From Calditrichia bacterium (GTDB taxonomy: Bacteria > Calditrichota > Calditrichia > RBG-13-44-9 > J075): a stretch of DNA of 64,000 nucleotides. A program made the position numbers and the translations under genes. Shown here piece by piece: positions 15,554 through 25,165 of the stretch. The number at the start of each line of letters is the position of its first letter. Position 1 is the first letter of the stretch. The notes under the pieces were generated by a model that saw only the letters and a program-made list of their open reading frames with translations, did not search any database and was not told the DNA's origin. The stretch covers positions 62,001-126,000 of the forward strand of contig JANQQU010000022.1 of the NCBI GenBank assembly GCA_028284905.1, written 5' to 3'.

Positions 15554-17761
15554 ATGAAAAAGCAAATTCTTTATTGGCTAATTGCGATCTGGTCTTGCGG
15601 ATTAGTCGGTATTACTCAGGCACAATTTTCGGCCAGCGAATGGCAATCGATAAACGCTGGTGGGCATGTACTGAGTATCGATTATTCTGCTGATGGCCGT
15701 TATATGGCCATGGCTACCAGTCAGAAATATTTTATCTACAATAAGAAGATGCAGATCATCTGGCAGTATACCCGGAGTGGTTCTGGTGCAGGAGGGCATG
15801 TAAGTCTATCTCCTAAAGGACGTTACCTGGCCTTCGGGAATTATCGTTCTGATGGCGATATCGGAATACTGGATATTGCCAGTCAGCAAATTATCCTCAC
15901 AATCAACGCGCATCGGCATGGAGTAATCGGGTTGGCGTTTACCCCTGATGAGCGTTATCTTGCTTCTTCGGATTATTCTCCGGTATTTAAAATATGGAAT
16001 ATTGCGGGTCGTAGCACCAGCCCGGTCCAAACAATTAGCCGCCACAAACAATATGTTTTGGATCTGGCTTTTACTGCGGATGGTCAGCATTTGATCAGCA
16101 GCAGTGAAGATAATTCTCTGATTATTTGGGGATTTAACAACGGCCGCTGTCTGGAAAAACAGACAATTGCGCCCTGGGGGCATGATATTTATGCGATTGC
16201 AATCAGTCCCGATGGAAAATATCTCGCTGCCGGAGGGCAACACAACGCCGTTAAGATCTGGCAAATGCAATCGGGCAGAGCCACCTTTTTACAGGATTTA
16301 TCAATCACCAGCATTCCGATTCGCGATATGGCATTTAGTCCGGATAGCAAATACCTCGCAGCGCTTGGCTCCGGGAAAAAGGTCCATGTATGGGGTAAGC
16401 GGGGAAATAGTTTCGCTCAATCGGCAACTTTGCAAATGCCCAGTGCCGGGTTATTTGCAATGAATTACGCTGTCGATTTCAGTCAGGATGGAAATTATCT
16501 TGCAGCAGGCGGCACAGCCAGTACTATGAAGGTTTGGTCGTTGAATGGCGTTAGTGGTAATGTTGGACCGATCGCCCAGGAAGGACCGTCATCTGGTAAC
16601 TTATCCCGCCTGGATCTGCTGATTGGTAACGATAACAACGATAATTCACCTCCGGAAACCAACCGCCGGGAGGTTGAGCGGATTCCTCCTACGGTTCGGA
16701 TCACACAGCCGACAGACTTCCTGACAACCCGTGAAAAAAAGATCATTCTGAAAGGAACAGCAACCGATAATGCTGGTGTTTATGAAGTTTTGGTCGATGG
16801 CGAGGAAGTCGATTTACAACGTTCTGGAGAGTTTGTCGCAGAAGTGAAACTGGCGATTGGCAGCAATACGGTTCGTGTAAAAGTAGTTGATAAAAATGGC
16901 AATATTACCGAAAAGCAGTTGACGATTATTCGCCAGGAGCGCGCACAGATCGTTGACGTTGACATCAATATTCCCAAAGGGCGCACAAGTCGCCCCAATG
17001 CCGTTGCCGTGGTGATTGGTAACAAAAACTATAACGCTCAGGACATTCCTGCGGTTGAGTTCGCACATCGGGATGCGGAAATTATGAAGCGATATTTAAT
17101 CGATGCTTTCGGTTATCGTGAGGTAAACATCATTTATGAATTGGATGCCGGAAAGTCGGTCTTTGAAAGAGTGTTTGGTATCGCCAGTGATCATCGTGGA
17201 CAGCTCTATAATTACATTAAAGAAGGAGTGTCCGACGTATTTGTTTTCTACAGTGGCCACGGGGCCCCGCATGTGGAGAGCGGCAAAACTTTTTTTGTGC
17301 CGGTTGATGCGGATCCGCAAACCATTCACCTCAACGGATACTCGGTGGAAACGATGTATACGAATCTTGGTAAATTGCCGGCAAAATCTATCACTGTTTC
17401 AGTCGATGCATGCTTTAGTGGATTCTCTGAACGAGGTTCCTTGATTCAGAATATCAGCCCGGCTATGCTGGTAGTGGAAAACCCTGTCATGACGCGTGAT
17501 AATATGTGGGTTTTCTCCGCTGCTCAAAACAACCAGGTCAGTTCCTGGTATGCCGAAATGAAGCATGGACTGTTCACATATTTCTTCTTAAAAGGTTTGC
17601 AGGGAAGTGCTGACAGTAATAATGATCGCAAAATCACTACCGGCGAAATGAAATCATATCTCAGCGAAAACGTGCCGCATCTGGCTCGCCGTTTAAACAG
17701 TAGGGAACAGAACCCGCAGTCGATGGGGCAAAATCCTGCCCGCGAGCTGGTGAATTATTAA
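15554..17761 (+). CDS. Exported WD40-caspase (peptidase C14) protein
   Basis: A 735-residue protein with a signal peptide ending near TQAQ. Residues 30-340 contain about six WD40 blades (for example FSPDSKYLAALG and KIWNIAG). Residues 375-460 form an Ig-like/Big domain beginning PPTVRITQP. Residues 478-735 form a caspase-like domain with catalytic His569 in YSGHGA and Cys620 in DACFSG. Bacterial caspase-like (orthocaspase or metacaspase) proteins cleave after basic residues or Asp. Here the enzyme is exported, so it would act in the periplasm or at the surface. The beta-propeller presumably recognises a partner. It heads a same-strand cluster with a DUF4384 protein, an MltC-like transglycosylase and another exported protein. 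Confidence 0.9.
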   Translation: MKKQILYWLIAIWSCGLVGITQAQFSASEWQSINAGGHVLSIDYSADGRYMAMATSQKYFIYNKKMQIIWQYTRSGSGAGGHVSLSPKGRYLAFGNYRSDGDIGILDIASQQIILTINAHRHGVIGLAFTPDERYLASSDYSPVFKIWNIAGRSTSPVQTISRHKQYVLDLAFTADGQHLISSSEDNSLIIWGFNNGRCLEKQTIAPWGHDIYAIAISPDGKYLAAGGQHNAVKIWQMQSGRATFLQDLSITSIPIRDMAFSPDSKYLAALGSGKKVHVWGKRGNSFAQSATLQMPSAGLFAMNYAVDFSQDGNYLAAGGTASTMKVWSLNGVSGNVGPIAQEGPSSGNLSRLDLLIGNDNNDNSPPETNRREVERIPPTVRITQPTDFLTTREKKIILKGTATDNAGVYEVLVDGEEVDLQRSGEFVAEVKLAIGSNTVRVKVVDKNGNITEKQLTIIRQERAQIVDVDINIPKGRTSRPNAVAVVIGNKNYNAQDIPAVEFAHRDAEIMKRYLIDAFGYREVNIIYELDAGKSVFERVFGIASDHRGQLYNYIKEGVSDVFVFYSGHGAPHVESGKTFFVPVDADPQTIHLNGYSVETMYTNLGKLPAKSITVSVDACFSGFSERGSLIQNISPAMLVVENPVMTRDNMWVFSAAQNNQVSSWYAEMKHGLFTYFFLKGLQGSADSNNDRKITTGEMKSYLSENVPHLARRLNSREQNPQSMGQNPARELVNY

Positions 17762-21952: not shown

Positions 21953-23959
21953 ATGAACGCATTCGAAATCAGTGATATACCCGGTTTAACAGATTTATGG
22001 GCGGAAACAATGGGTGAACCGGAAATCTCCATTGCAATCCTGGACGGGCCGATTGATGTTACGCATCCGGACCTTCAGAAAGCTAATATAATTCAGTTCG
22101 GTTCATCTTTTACAGCTTCTGCCAATTATAGTGCTGCATCTGCACATGGTACTCATGTTGCGAGTATTATTTTCGGGAATCATGACAGTGCGATTAAAGG
22201 AATTGCACCACGATGCAGGGGAATTAGTATCCCGATTTTCAAAGATAAAAAGGATGGGGGTATTGCACCGTGTTCGCAAGTGGATCTTGCCCGGGCAATC
22301 TCGCTGGCAATTGAACAAGGTGCTGATATTATTAATATCAGTGGCGGAGAGTTATCTACAACCGGAAAGGCCCATCCGCTATTAGCCAAGGCTGTTCAGG
22401 ATTGTATTAAAAGGGGCATTTTGATTGTTGCCGCTGCCGGAAATCAGGGATGCAATTGTCTTCACATTCCCGGTGCACTGCCTTCGGTTATTGCTGTCGG
22501 AGCAATGGATCGGGAAGGCCTACCCTTAGATTTTAGCAACTGGGGAGATTTGTATCAAAGTCAGGGAGTGTTGGCACCCGGTAGCGGTATCATTGGTGCA
22601 TCTCCTGATGGCGAAACTGTCCTAAAAAGTGGTACCAGTTATGCAACGCCCATCGTTGCCGGTGCTGCAGCCCTCCTGCTGAGTATTCAATTAAAAAAGA
22701 ATAAAAAGACTAATCCAGAAATGGTAAGAGGCGCAATCCTCGGCAATACTATCGGTTGTGATGTACAGCCGGTAGCGAATTGCCGCCGCCTGCTTGCCGG
22801 CCGTTTGAATCTTAAAAACATCATATTTCAAATTACAAAAGGAGAGAATCTTATGTCTGAAACAAAAGAAGTTTATGAGAGCCAACTGGCGCATGAAATC
22901 GTAGAGAATGCTACGAATAATGCTTGTTCGCTGCCGCAGGTTCATAACAATTCAGTGATGGCCGCCGAAGCTAATGGGGCTGTTGAAAAGGATAATACAG
23001 TGGATGTGTCTTCCACGATGATTTCGGTAAACCCACAAGGGGTGGATGTAAATAAACAAAATTCAGCAATCAACGAATCAGTTGCAGCATCATCATGTGG
23101 TTGTAGTAGCAATACTGAAGAAAGCAATCCAATACAAATGGGGTTTGTTTTGGGTCAAATCGGTTTTGATTTGAGGTCTGAGGCCCGGCGGGATTCTATC
23201 CAACAACATATGGAACCAGCTTCGGCAACCAATGGTTTTTCGGCAAATCCGCATGACCCCGCCCAGATGCTTACCTATTTAAGTGATAATCCCTGGGAAG
23301 CCGCTTCCATTACCTGGACGTTAAATCTGGATTCCACACCATTATATGCTATTCAGGCCCAGGGGCCCTATGCGAATGAAGTATATCAGCGATTAAGGGA
23401 GTTTTTGAGGGAGCAGAGTGAAGGGCGAATTGAGCGGATATCTCTGGGCGGATACATTACCGGTGAACTGCAATTGTTGTCTGGCCAAGTTGTGCCGGTT
23501 ATCTGGCCGGAAATCCGCTGCATGTATAGTTGGAACACAACGGAACTTATTAAGGCTGTTTGTGGCGAGCCTCCCACCGGAAGTGCAAAAGTAAAAGAGA
23601 AGGATACCTATCAGCGGAATTGCGATTCTGTCGTCAATTTTTTGCAGCGAGTATATCATGAATTAAGGAATTTTGGCGTAACCTCCTGCGATCGGGCAAT
23701 TAATTACGCTGCGACAAATGCATTGAATGCGGCTAAAATTTTTGAAGCAGCCCTTAAGGATAATATGCAACTAGATACGATCGAATGTGAACGTAGCCCG
23801 GTTTGCCGTGCTGAATCTGATTGCTGGGACATCAAACTCGGTTTTTTTGATCCGGAAAATCAACTTACCCGCGCTCGAAAAGTATATCGGTTTACCATCG
23901 ATGTTAGTGATGTTTGCCCGGTAACGGTTGGAGCGGTGCGTAGCTGGTTTGTGCGTTGA
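21953..23959 (+). CDS. PatA/PatG-type subtilisin (cyanobactin maturation protease family)
   Basis: A 668-residue serine protease without a signal peptide. Residues 10-285 are a subtilase domain with catalytic Asp31 (ILDG), His65 (HGTH), Ser229 (SGTSYA) and oxyanion Asn164. The sequence around each, for example PGLTDLWAETMGEP, GCNCLH and LDFSNWG, matches PatA. Residues 390-668 correspond to the conserved C-terminal domain of PatA/PatG: FVLGQIGFDLRSEARRDS, RNFGVTSCDRAINYAATNA, CWDIKLGFFDPEN and ending in VGAVRSWFVR. A variable Cys-poor linker (about 301-385) contains SSCGCSS. In cyanobactin biosynthesis PatA removes the leader peptide and PatG cyclises. No YcaO cyclodehydratase, prenyltransferase or dehydrogenase is nearby. 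Its natural substrates are probably the three small proteins that follow. A perfect internal start lies at Met301. Confidence 0.9.
   Translation: MNAFEISDIPGLTDLWAETMGEPEISIAILDGPIDVTHPDLQKANIIQFGSSFTASANYSAASAHGTHVASIIFGNHDSAIKGIAPRCRGISIPIFKDKKDGGIAPCSQVDLARAISLAIEQGADIINISGGELSTTGKAHPLLAKAVQDCIKRGILIVAAAGNQGCNCLHIPGALPSVIAVGAMDREGLPLDFSNWGDLYQSQGVLAPGSGIIGASPDGETVLKSGTSYATPIVAGAAALLLSIQLKKNKKTNPEMVRGAILGNTIGCDVQPVANCRRLLAGRLNLKNIIFQITKGENLMSETKEVYESQLAHEIVENATNNACSLPQVHNNSVMAAEANGAVEKDNTVDVSSTMISVNPQGVDVNKQNSAINESVAASSCGCSSNTEESNPIQMGFVLGQIGFDLRSEARRDSIQQHMEPASATNGFSANPHDPAQMLTYLSDNPWEAASITWTLNLDSTPLYAIQAQGPYANEVYQRLREFLREQSEGRIERISLGGYITGELQLLSGQVVPVIWPEIRCMYSWNTTELIKAVCGEPPTGSAKVKEKDTYQRNCDSVVNFLQRVYHELRNFGVTSCDRAINYAATNALNAAKIFEAALKDNMQLDTIECERSPVCRAESDCWDIKLGFFDPENQLTRARKVYRFTIDVSDVCPVTVGAVRSWFVR
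22837..22855 (+). promoter_or_regulatory. Internal ribosome site and in-frame start inside the PatA-like gene
   Basis: AAAAGGAG at 22837-22844 stands 8 bases before ATG 22853-22855, which is codon 301 of the protease and in the same frame. Translation from it would give a separate 368-residue protein consisting of the linker and the C-terminal domain, without the catalytic triad. Sites this good are unusual inside a coding frame, so the gene may make two products. Confidence 0.55.
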
Positions 23960-24024
23960 TGAGCCAACTCAGTTAGGCAGTTAAACACATATAAACTAAC
24001 GTTTTACTAATGAAAGGATTTATT

Positions 24025-24417
24025 ATGAAATTACCAAAGCAATCTGTACCGGTCGAAAGAAACAGTGGAGAATTAATTGACAAGTCGGAACTTCCCGGAA
24101 GCGGACTTTTTCCTTCTGCGGCCAGAGGCGGCTCCGGGCAAGCAGGAGGAAAATGTAAAGTTACTTCGGGATCCAATGCCGGAAAAACGGGCACTTATAC
24201 CGAGGATGGAGAAGGGCTTTGGTGTGAAGGCGATTGGGGCGGCACACAATGCACCGATTCGCAAGGAAACTCCAATGGTAAATGTAGCAATGCCAGACAG
24301 TGGATGGGTGGACTTGGCACTGTTGATGATTTTGGCAGTAGAGAATTAAGAGTATTTTTTGCGCCTTCCAGACCAAGGTTCCGTTTTCGTTCTCCCGGCT
24401 TCTTCCGCTTCTTTTAA
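24025..24417 (+). CDS. Small Gly/Cys-rich protein 1, candidate protease substrate
   Basis: A 130-residue protein. The ATG at 24025 has AAAGGA 6 bases upstream. An in-frame ATG five codons earlier has none. It begins MKLPKQSVPVERNSG, a motif shared in part with the two following small proteins and reminiscent of cyanobactin leader starts. Residues 35-42 are Gly-rich, so a cleavage site may lie there. Four cysteines (44, 67, 76, 87) lie in a hydrophilic Gly/Ser/Asn-rich region. The tail (116-130) is rich in Arg and Phe. No signal peptide is seen. It follows the protease by 65 bases. A precursor role is inference. Confidence 0.65.
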   Translation: MKLPKQSVPVERNSGELIDKSELPGSGLFPSAARGGSGQAGGKCKVTSGSNAGKTGTYTEDGEGLWCEGDWGGTQCTDSQGNSNGKCSNARQWMGGLGTVDDFGSRELRVFFAPSRPRFRFRSPGFFRFF

Positions 24418-24492: not shown

Positions 24493-24768
24493 ATGGGAAT
24501 GCCAATTCAATCAATCGGTAGTACTCGTAAGGTCGAAATAATCCCGGGTAAAAATCTTGTTAAACCGAGCCTTTTTAGTTGGGTGAATTTAGGATACGAA
24601 GACCTGGTTTATGGCCCGCAAATCTCCATCGATCCCTCACCTGCAGCGTGCGATCTGGCCTGTGGGGAAGGACGCAGCGATTGCGCGAGAGAAGGAGGCA
24701 GTCGTTGGGAATGTCATCAGGAACACCGGCAATGCCTCTGGGATTGCGCTACTGGTATGGCTTTTTAG
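24493..24768 (+). CDS. Small six-Cys protein 2, candidate protease substrate
   Basis: A 91-residue protein preceded by AAAAGGAG 9 bases before the ATG. It starts MGMPIQSIG, related to the neighbouring small proteins. The C-terminal half carries six cysteines (53, 57, 64, 74, 81, 85) with the mirror-symmetric spacing C-x3-C-x6-C-x9-C-x6-C-x3-C. That spacing puts Cys on the same face of two antiparallel helices, so a disulphide-locked helical hairpin (1-6, 2-5, 3-4) is plausible. No signal peptide is evident, so export would need the leader or a dedicated route. Function unknown, assignment as precursor inferred. Confidence 0.65.
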   Translation: MGMPIQSIGSTRKVEIIPGKNLVKPSLFSWVNLGYEDLVYGPQISIDPSPAACDLACGEGRSDCAREGGSRWECHQEHRQCLWDCATGMAF

Positions 24769-24787
24769 TCGTTTTAGATTTTTGGAG

Positions 24788-24824
24788 CTCCCGGGAATAC
24801 AGAATACTTTCTTTATTCCCGGAG
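24788..24824 (+). repeat. Stem-loop between small proteins 2 and 3
   Basis: CTCCCGGGAATA at 24788-24799 pairs with TATTCCCGGAG at 24814-24824 with one bulged C. No T-run follows, so it is more likely an mRNA-stabilising or attenuating hairpin than a full terminator. It lies 19 bases after the stop of small protein 2. Confidence 0.6.
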
Positions 24825-24937
24825 TCTGCAGGACTTCGAAGTGTCGATTCTATTGAACTTCTTTAACCAATGAATTCAAATCAAACACCTGCTTACAAAT
24901 TGAAATTGTCAGCAGGTGATATTCCAGGAGGAAAAAA

Positions 24938-25165
24938 ATGAAATTGCCCAGACAAGCTGAAGGCACTAGTCATCGAAATTTAACTGATAGCAACTCCCGG
25001 CAATTGCGCATCTCTTTACCCGGAGGGCTGGCGAAAGAAATTGGGCTCGGAGATGTTGTCAAAAGTATAACGTCCAAGGTAGGGTTTAAGCCGTGTGGCG
25101 GCTGTCAGAAACGAGCCGCCGTATTGAACCAACGAATGGTATTTGTTCCTGCCCGGAAAAAGTGA
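24938..25165 (+). CDS. Small CGGC protein 3, candidate protease substrate
   Basis: A 75-residue protein with AGGAGG before the ATG. It starts MKLPRQAEG, like small protein 1. Residues 35-66 (EIGLGDVVKSITSKVGF then KPCGGCQKRAAVLN) match a short motif seen in various phage and bacterial small proteins, in which the CxxC may bind a metal or form a redox pair. Cys53 and Cys56 are the only cysteines. The tail is basic. No signal peptide. It is the last gene of the protease cassette and is convergent with the NhaC gene 45 bases away. Confidence 0.6.
   Translation: MKLPRQAEGTSHRNLTDSNSRQLRISLPGGLAKEIGLGDVVKSITSKVGFKPCGGCQKRAAVLNQRMVFVPARKK

What the first reader, a model, noticed from the sequence alone, without database searches (positions are those of the whole stretch)
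24493..24768. Mirror-symmetric cysteine spacing C-x3-C-x6-C-x9-C-x6-C-x3-C
Six Cys at 53, 57, 64, 74, 81 and 85 give a palindromic spacing. In two antiparallel helices this places each Cys opposite its mirror partner, giving a helical hairpin closed by three disulphides. It resembles the idea of alpha-hairpinins (CX3C...CX3C) with one extra bridge. It is a specific structural prediction for an otherwise unknown protein.
Basis: seen in the sequence. Interest (0 to 1): 0.7.

Follow-up and report, generated by a model that had tools for sequence, protein, structure and literature searches.

The report
Six-cysteine hairpin substrate of PatA-type protease
The 91-residue protein looks like the precursor of a small helical-hairpin peptide, cut out by the cyanobactin-type protease encoded just upstream; the same protease-plus-peptide unit, once with the identical mirrored cysteine spacing, sits in unrelated bacteria, so the symmetry is real and belongs to a widely spread and apparently undescribed peptide-maturation module.

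Summary
The ORF and its C-x3-C-x6-C-x9-C-x6-C-x3-C spacing are real and unlikely by chance (about 0.001-0.003 per six-Cys protein). The protein is not an isolated unknown. It is the second of three small genes directly downstream of a complete PatA/PatG-family cyanobactin maturation protease (711 bits, cut-off 421). All three begin with the leader M-x-[LM]-P-x-Q-[SA]; two, this one included, also carry a site resembling PatA's cleavage site (here LVKPS|). Around 37 related proteases from several phyla, 68 small ORFs with such leaders lie downstream on the same strand, against 7-11 in each control set, and 49 carry a cleavage-like site (9.5 expected). One core, in a Planctomycetota genome, has exactly 3,6,9,6,3; two in a Desulfobulbaceae genome have 3,10,9,10,3, each arm longer by four residues. 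AlphaFold gives a helical hairpin with three Cys per helix (core pLDDT 86; helices at the same places without an alignment). The genome has no YcaO heterocyclase, so this is not an azoline cyanobactin. Best reading: a cyanobactin-like, leader-directed precursor releasing a six-Cys helical hairpin, probably closed by three mirrored disulphides. Bonds, export and activity are unproven; metal binding is the main rival.

The parts
21953..23959 (+). PatA-type maturation protease: subtilase domain (catalytic D31, H65 and S229 by alignment) plus the C-terminal PatG_D/PatG_C domain of unknown function
   Evidence: TIGR03895 711 bits (cut-off 421.05), Pfam Peptidase_S8, PatG_D, PatG_C; triad residues fall in invariant alignment columns; 42% identical to a cyanobactin-cluster PatA over its full length
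24025..24417 (+). First small ORF (130 aa), leader MKLPKQSVPVER, cleavage-like site GLFPS, 4 Cys
   Evidence: Sequence, AAAGGA upstream of ATG 24025; motif scan
24493..24570 (+). Leader of the 91-aa protein, aa 1-26: MGMPIQSIGSTRKVEIIPGKNLVKPS; proposed PatA-type cut after S26
   Evidence: Leader and site motifs shared with many of 68 ORFs downstream of related proteases; leader predicted disordered; consensus G(L/V)E(A/P)S from PMC10885120
24571..24765 (+). Proposed core peptide, aa 27-91 (65 aa, acidic: 10 D/E, 4 K/R)
   Evidence: Inference from the cleavage-like site; composition
24640..24753 (+). Six-Cys helical hairpin, helices aa 50-66 and 71-87; mirror pairs C53/C85, C57/C81, C64/C74
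   Evidence: AlphaFold with and without alignment; Cys columns invariant in alignment A4; geometry
24938..25165 (+). Third small ORF (75 aa), leader MKLPRQ, GLGDVV...KPCGGC...RAAVLN family
   Evidence: AGGAGG upstream; phmmer 1.8e-13 to L116; homologues beside S8 proteases on Streptomyces and rhizobial plasmids

Best explanation
The 91-aa protein is a precursor for the PatA-type subtilase encoded upstream. Residues 1-26 are a leader that the protease recognises (M-x-M-P-x-Q-S-x(4)-R), ending in a PatA-like cleavage site (LVKPS|). Cleavage releases a 65-residue core whose C-terminal part folds as an antiparallel helical hairpin with three Cys per helix facing each other, most simply closed by three mirrored disulphides (53-85, 57-81, 64-74) once the peptide leaves the reducing cytoplasm. 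No heterocyclase or macrocyclase takes part: it uses the proteolytic half of a cyanobactin pathway to deliver a Cys-rich mini-protein. Steps: gene neighbourhood, leader and site motifs, and Cys conservation are shown by sequence; the hairpin is predicted; cleavage (about 0.75), disulphides (about 0.55) and export with a role outside the cell (about 0.35, for instance competition or signalling) are inferred.
For: Adjacent complete PatA/PatG protease with intact triad. Around 37 related proteases: 68 leader-start ORFs downstream on the same strand, against 11 downstream on the opposite strand and 7 and 11 upstream; a cleavage-like site in 49 of 68, 9.5 expected on shuffling. PatA-like enzymes cut after G(L/V)E(A/P)S (PMC10885120). 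Identical 3,6,9,6,3 spacing in a Planctomycetota locus and 3,10,9,10,3 in a Desulfobulbaceae locus, both leader-bearing and downstream of the same kind of protease. Helical hairpin at pLDDT 85.9, and again without an alignment at 72-81, with the leader disordered. No YcaO in the genome.
Against: Site LVKPS departs from the canonical GLEAS/GVEPS at two positions. No significant sequence similarity to any other core beyond leader and Cys pattern (phmmer E 0.08 or worse). No conserved exporter or oxidase next to these proteases, so how the peptide would reach an oxidising place is unknown. Only four sequences, two of them near-identical, support the hairpin alignment. Leader expression, site pattern and helix-face measure were chosen after seeing the data.
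Confidence: 0.65

Rival explanations
1. The six Cys are thiolate ligands, not disulphides: two hairpins pair into a four-helix bundle, or one hairpin alone, binding Cu(I) or Zn in the cytoplasm, as CX3C-rich helical copper-storage proteins do (recalled, not tested). The protease then only activates or turns over a metal-binding protein.
For: Both arms place all Cys on one helix face (mean resultant length 0.96); the core is acidic and two His lie in arm 2; the protease and the leader show no signal peptide by eye, so maturation is probably cytoplasmic; no exporter found nearby.
Against: Leader and cleavage site are shared with precursors of many unrelated Cys patterns, and with Cys-free Streptomyces and Mycolicibacterium ones, so metal binding is not a property of the system. 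Copper-storage proteins were not found by fold or sequence search, though that is weak evidence.
Confidence: 0.22
2. The Cys (and Ser/Thr) are post-translationally modified by enzymes encoded elsewhere, such as thioether or heterocycle formation, so it is a conventional modified RiPP whose mirror spacing reflects the modifying enzyme.
For: The protease family belongs to RiPP pathways, and precursors can be encoded apart from their modifying enzymes (PMC4603692).
Against: No YcaO anywhere in the genome; only the protease and the peptides recur among the loci compared; gaps of 4, 7 and 11 residues suit a helix. Lanthionine synthetases and radical-SAM maturases were not searched genome-wide.
Confidence: 0.1
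3. The protein is not cut; it is a bystander or an accessory like PatB, whose leader resembles it, and the mirror spacing is a chance of composition.
For: PatB-type proteins share the start of the leader (L032:10571), and PatB is reported as non-essential with unknown role (PMC4259220).
Against: The exact spacing recurs in a distant genome in the same gene context; PatB's ANYNDP block is absent here.
Confidence: 0.08

Closest known systems
Cyanobactin pathway (patellamide type: PatA, PatE, PatG)
   Same: PatA-type subtilase with its C-terminal domain; leader resembling the [LM]PQxxxPVxR start of PatE-type precursors (for example L063, L105); PatA-like cleavage site before the core
   Different: No YcaO heterocyclase in the genome, no second (PatG) protease above cut-off, no LAELSEE block, no AYDG-type C-terminal site; core is 65 aa rather than a short cyclised peptide, and predicted to be folded
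Plant alpha-hairpinins, including six-Cys Nigellin-1.1 (PDB 2NB2; PMC11591084)
   Same: Helix-loop-helix closed by mirrored Cys pairs; outer CX3C motifs; six Cys in the 6C class
   Different: Spacing 3,3,n,3,3 there against 3,6,9,6,3 here; plant, secreted with a signal peptide; no sequence similarity shown; here the release is proposed to be by a PatA-type protease
Twin CX3C small Tim proteins
   Same: Two antiparallel helices joined by mirrored CX3C pairs
   Different: Four Cys, mitochondrial; recalled from general knowledge, not tested by alignment here
PatB/AcyB/McaB family (TIGR04220)
   Same: N-terminal M[KR]LPxx(S/A)xPVKR block
   Different: ANYNDP core block, few Cys, found in heterocyclase-containing clusters

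Membership tests
Cyanobactin biosynthetic cluster | PatA/PatG-family protease | tested here: met
   TIGR03895 711 bits, cut-off 421
Cyanobactin biosynthetic cluster | Precursor with PatA cleavage site G(L/V)E(A/P)S | tested here: inconclusive
   LVKPS at aa 22-26: departs at two positions
Cyanobactin biosynthetic cluster | YcaO heterocyclase (in azoline cyanobactins) | tested here: not met
   No PF02624 match in the genome, controls ring
Cyanobactin biosynthetic cluster | PatG-type macrocyclase and C-terminal AYDG-like site | tested here: not met
   Only one TIGR03895 match above cut-off in the genome; C-terminus reads CATGMAF
alpha-Hairpinin | CX3C-X4-20-CX3C or CX3CX3C-X4-20-CX3CX3C motif | tested here: not met
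   Observed CX3CX6CX9CX6CX3C; motif definition from PMC11591084
alpha-Hairpinin | Helix-loop-helix fold | tested here: met
   AlphaFold models
alpha-Hairpinin | Mirrored disulphides | not testable with these tools
   Geometry permits them; no oxidation data
PatB/AcyB/McaB (TIGR04220) | Score above curated cut-off | tested here: not met
   No NCBIfam match for the 91-aa protein at E 0.1
Any Pfam or NCBIfam family | Significant match | tested here: not met
   None at E 0.1

The most novel reading that the evidence does not exclude
PatA-type proteases outside heterocyclase clusters form a separate, cross-phylum system that releases leader-tagged, mostly Cys-rich mini-proteins, including a six-Cys mirror-symmetric helical hairpin not described before; the shared leader and the conserved C-terminal domain of unknown function would be each other's partners.
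Probability: 0.5. Interest if true: 0.75.

Novelty: new variant of a known kind. Interest (0 to 1): 0.62.

Why it matters
It links an anonymous Cys-rich protein to a concrete maturation enzyme and indicates that the cyanobactin protease is used, without the chemistry that defines cyanobactins, in Cyanobacteriota, Planctomycetota, Gemmatimonadota, Desulfobacterota, Pseudomonadota, Nitrospirota and Actinomycetota. It gives a source of candidate disulphide-rich peptides that current families do not name, and it bears on an open question: the role of the conserved domain at the C-terminus of PatA and PatG, for which no ligand was found (PMC4259220). That domain accompanies the M-x-L-P-x-Q leader in clusters that have little else in common.

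Tried and rejected
Homologues of the 91-aa protein by sequence: none convincing in 60 relatives (best 0.007, with a stop inside) or on plasmids. The first genome scan with the protease alone found nothing; the profile scan worked. Further TIGR03895 searches of Desulfobacterota, the order of Janthinobacterium and Gemmatimonadota added no new genome; Planctomycetota added one, decisively. Viral contigs held only weak subtilase matches. Copper-storage and other known folds: Foldseek best E 6.2, Z 6.0 or less; a short helical hairpin matches many things, so this is uninformative. PDB by sequence: nothing. Conserved neighbours other than protease and peptides: none across phyla; an AAA-like gene recurs in seven cyanobacterial loci only. 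Searching for a published account of heterocyclase-free PatA loci with Cys-rich peptides found none in the held open-access library, which does not cover most subscription journals. The geometry test is weak: five free parameters against three distances, and a non-mirrored control also fitted.

Full report
Observation. The ORF at 24493-24768 (+) encodes 91 residues and starts at an ATG with a good ribosome-binding site. Its six Cys (53, 57, 64, 74, 81, 85) have gaps 3,6,9,6,3. Random placement of six Cys is mirror-symmetric in 0.09% of cases over the protein and 0.3% within the observed span. Among 14 window ORFs with six Cys within 60 residues, only this one is symmetric. The figures are after the fact, so recurrence elsewhere matters more.

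Context. The gene directly upstream (21953-23959) is a complete PatA/PatG-family cyanobactin maturation protease: TIGR03895 711 bits against a cut-off of 421, with subtilase, PatG_D and PatG_C domains. It matches a cyanobactin-cluster PatA over its whole length at 42%. It is the only one in its genome above cut-off and the only one among 40 genomes of its class. Three small genes follow on the same strand, each with a Shine-Dalgarno sequence: 24025-24417 (the mechanical ORF list begins at 24010, but ATG 24025 fits leader and ribosome-binding site better), 24493-24768 and 24938-25165. All three begin M-x-[LM]-P-x-Q-[SA].

Related loci. Plasmid records and one profile scan of genome contigs gave about 90 loci. 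Just downstream of the proteases lie small ORFs with the same leader, roughly M-[KRN]-[LIM]-P-x-Q-[SA]-x-[PG]-[VI]-x-R, in Cyanobacteriota, Janthinobacterium, Shewanella, Gemmatimonadota, Nitrospira, Desulfobulbaceae, Planctomycetota, Mycolicibacterium and Streptomyces. Counted over 37 loci: 68 downstream on the same strand, 11 downstream on the other strand, 7 and 11 upstream. Some of the 68 will be chance, as the controls show. Between residues 14 and 45, 49 of 68 have a site like G[VIL]x[PA]S; shuffling predicts 9.5. PatA-like enzymes cut after G(L/V)E(A/P)S (PMC10885120). In the window protein the site reads LVKPS, aa 22-26. Canonical cyanobactin precursors and PatB-type proteins in the same loci share the start of the leader.

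The Cys pattern in relatives. In a Planctomycetota genome (G915; L129/L140) the second small ORF after the protease, with a Shine-Dalgarno sequence, ends LCQIGCNLAHGACIAAGIPPAVCNAGLAACLSAC, whose spacing is exactly 3,6,9,6,3. In a Desulfobulbaceae genome (L097) two paralogues have 3,10,9,10,3. The alignment places all six Cys in register and puts a four-residue insertion in each arm, as expected if both helices grew by about one turn. Of 53 leader-like ORFs with six Cys within 60 residues, six are mirror-symmetric where 0.67 is expected (related and overlapping ORFs count apart); three of the six are those just named, the others have short gaps or come from repeats. Other cores are nearly symmetric (3,6,8,8,2; 3,6,14,8,2) or follow different patterns, and some have no Cys.

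Fold. AlphaFold on the 42-residue core with four sequences gives two helices, mean pLDDT 85.9, pTM 0.57. The full protein without any alignment gives helices at 50-66 and 71-87 (pLDDT 72-81 by block) and a disordered leader. Cys positions 0, 4, 11 lie on one helix face. An ideal-helix model satisfies 53-85, 57-81 and 64-74 simultaneously and none of the five other inter-arm pairings, though it also accepts one non-mirrored control spacing. Coordinates could not be inspected, so Cys-Cys distances in the models are not known.

What is absent. No YcaO protein is encoded in the genome, with positive controls ringing; no second PatG-type protease above cut-off; no conserved modifying enzyme or exporter beside the proteases. 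The core is acidic (10 D/E, 4 K/R), so a standard cationic membrane-active peptide is unlikely.

Interpretation. The best-supported account is a leader-directed, protease-released six-Cys helical hairpin: the cyanobactin proteolytic step used without cyanobactin chemistry. The leader-protease pairing rests on co-occurrence and motif statistics, the hairpin on prediction and mirrored conservation, and the disulphides on geometry alone. Metal binding by the same Cys is the main rival. The conserved C-terminal domain, which showed no binding to PatE in earlier work (PMC4259220), accompanies these leaders in otherwise different clusters and is a candidate partner; that earlier negative result counts against it.

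Comparison. It works like a three-bridge alpha-hairpinin in architecture but fails the family's Cys motif. It shares the protease and leader of cyanobactins but lacks the heterocyclase, macrocyclase and C-terminal site. It is therefore filed as a new variant of a known kind.

Noticed in passing
window 24938-25165: Third small ORF belongs to a GLGDxxK...KPCGGC...RAxxLN peptide family. On Streptomyces and Sinorhizobium plasmids the homologue sits between a short S8 protease gene and a separate gene that by eye resembles the PatG C-terminal domain, i.e. perhaps a split PatA (L146, L147).
   Followed up: partly
window 24780-24835: Strong RNA stem-loop (-27.6 kcal/mol, z -3.95) between the second and third small ORFs, without a T run; perhaps an mRNA processing or stability element.
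   Followed up: partly
window 15554-17761: WD40 propeller fused to a caspase-like domain (EACC1-associated type), followed by DUF4384 and lytic transglycosylase genes, a few kb upstream of the protease.
   Followed up: no
L097:8572-8901: Third leader-bearing precursor in the Desulfobulbaceae locus starts its core with CX3CX6C like the window protein but is not symmetric afterwards.
   Followed up: no
L035:8773-9759: Four tandem, near-identical, Cys-free leader-bearing ORFs after a PatA-like protease on a Streptomyces plasmid.
   Followed up: no
L032:10571-10786: PatB/AcyB/McaB proteins carry the same N-terminal block as these precursors, suggesting PatB is itself recognised by PatA/PatG.
   Followed up: partly
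L033, L047, L094, L095, L102, L110: An AAA-like ATPase gene on the opposite strand upstream of the protease recurs in cyanobacterial loci.
   Followed up: no
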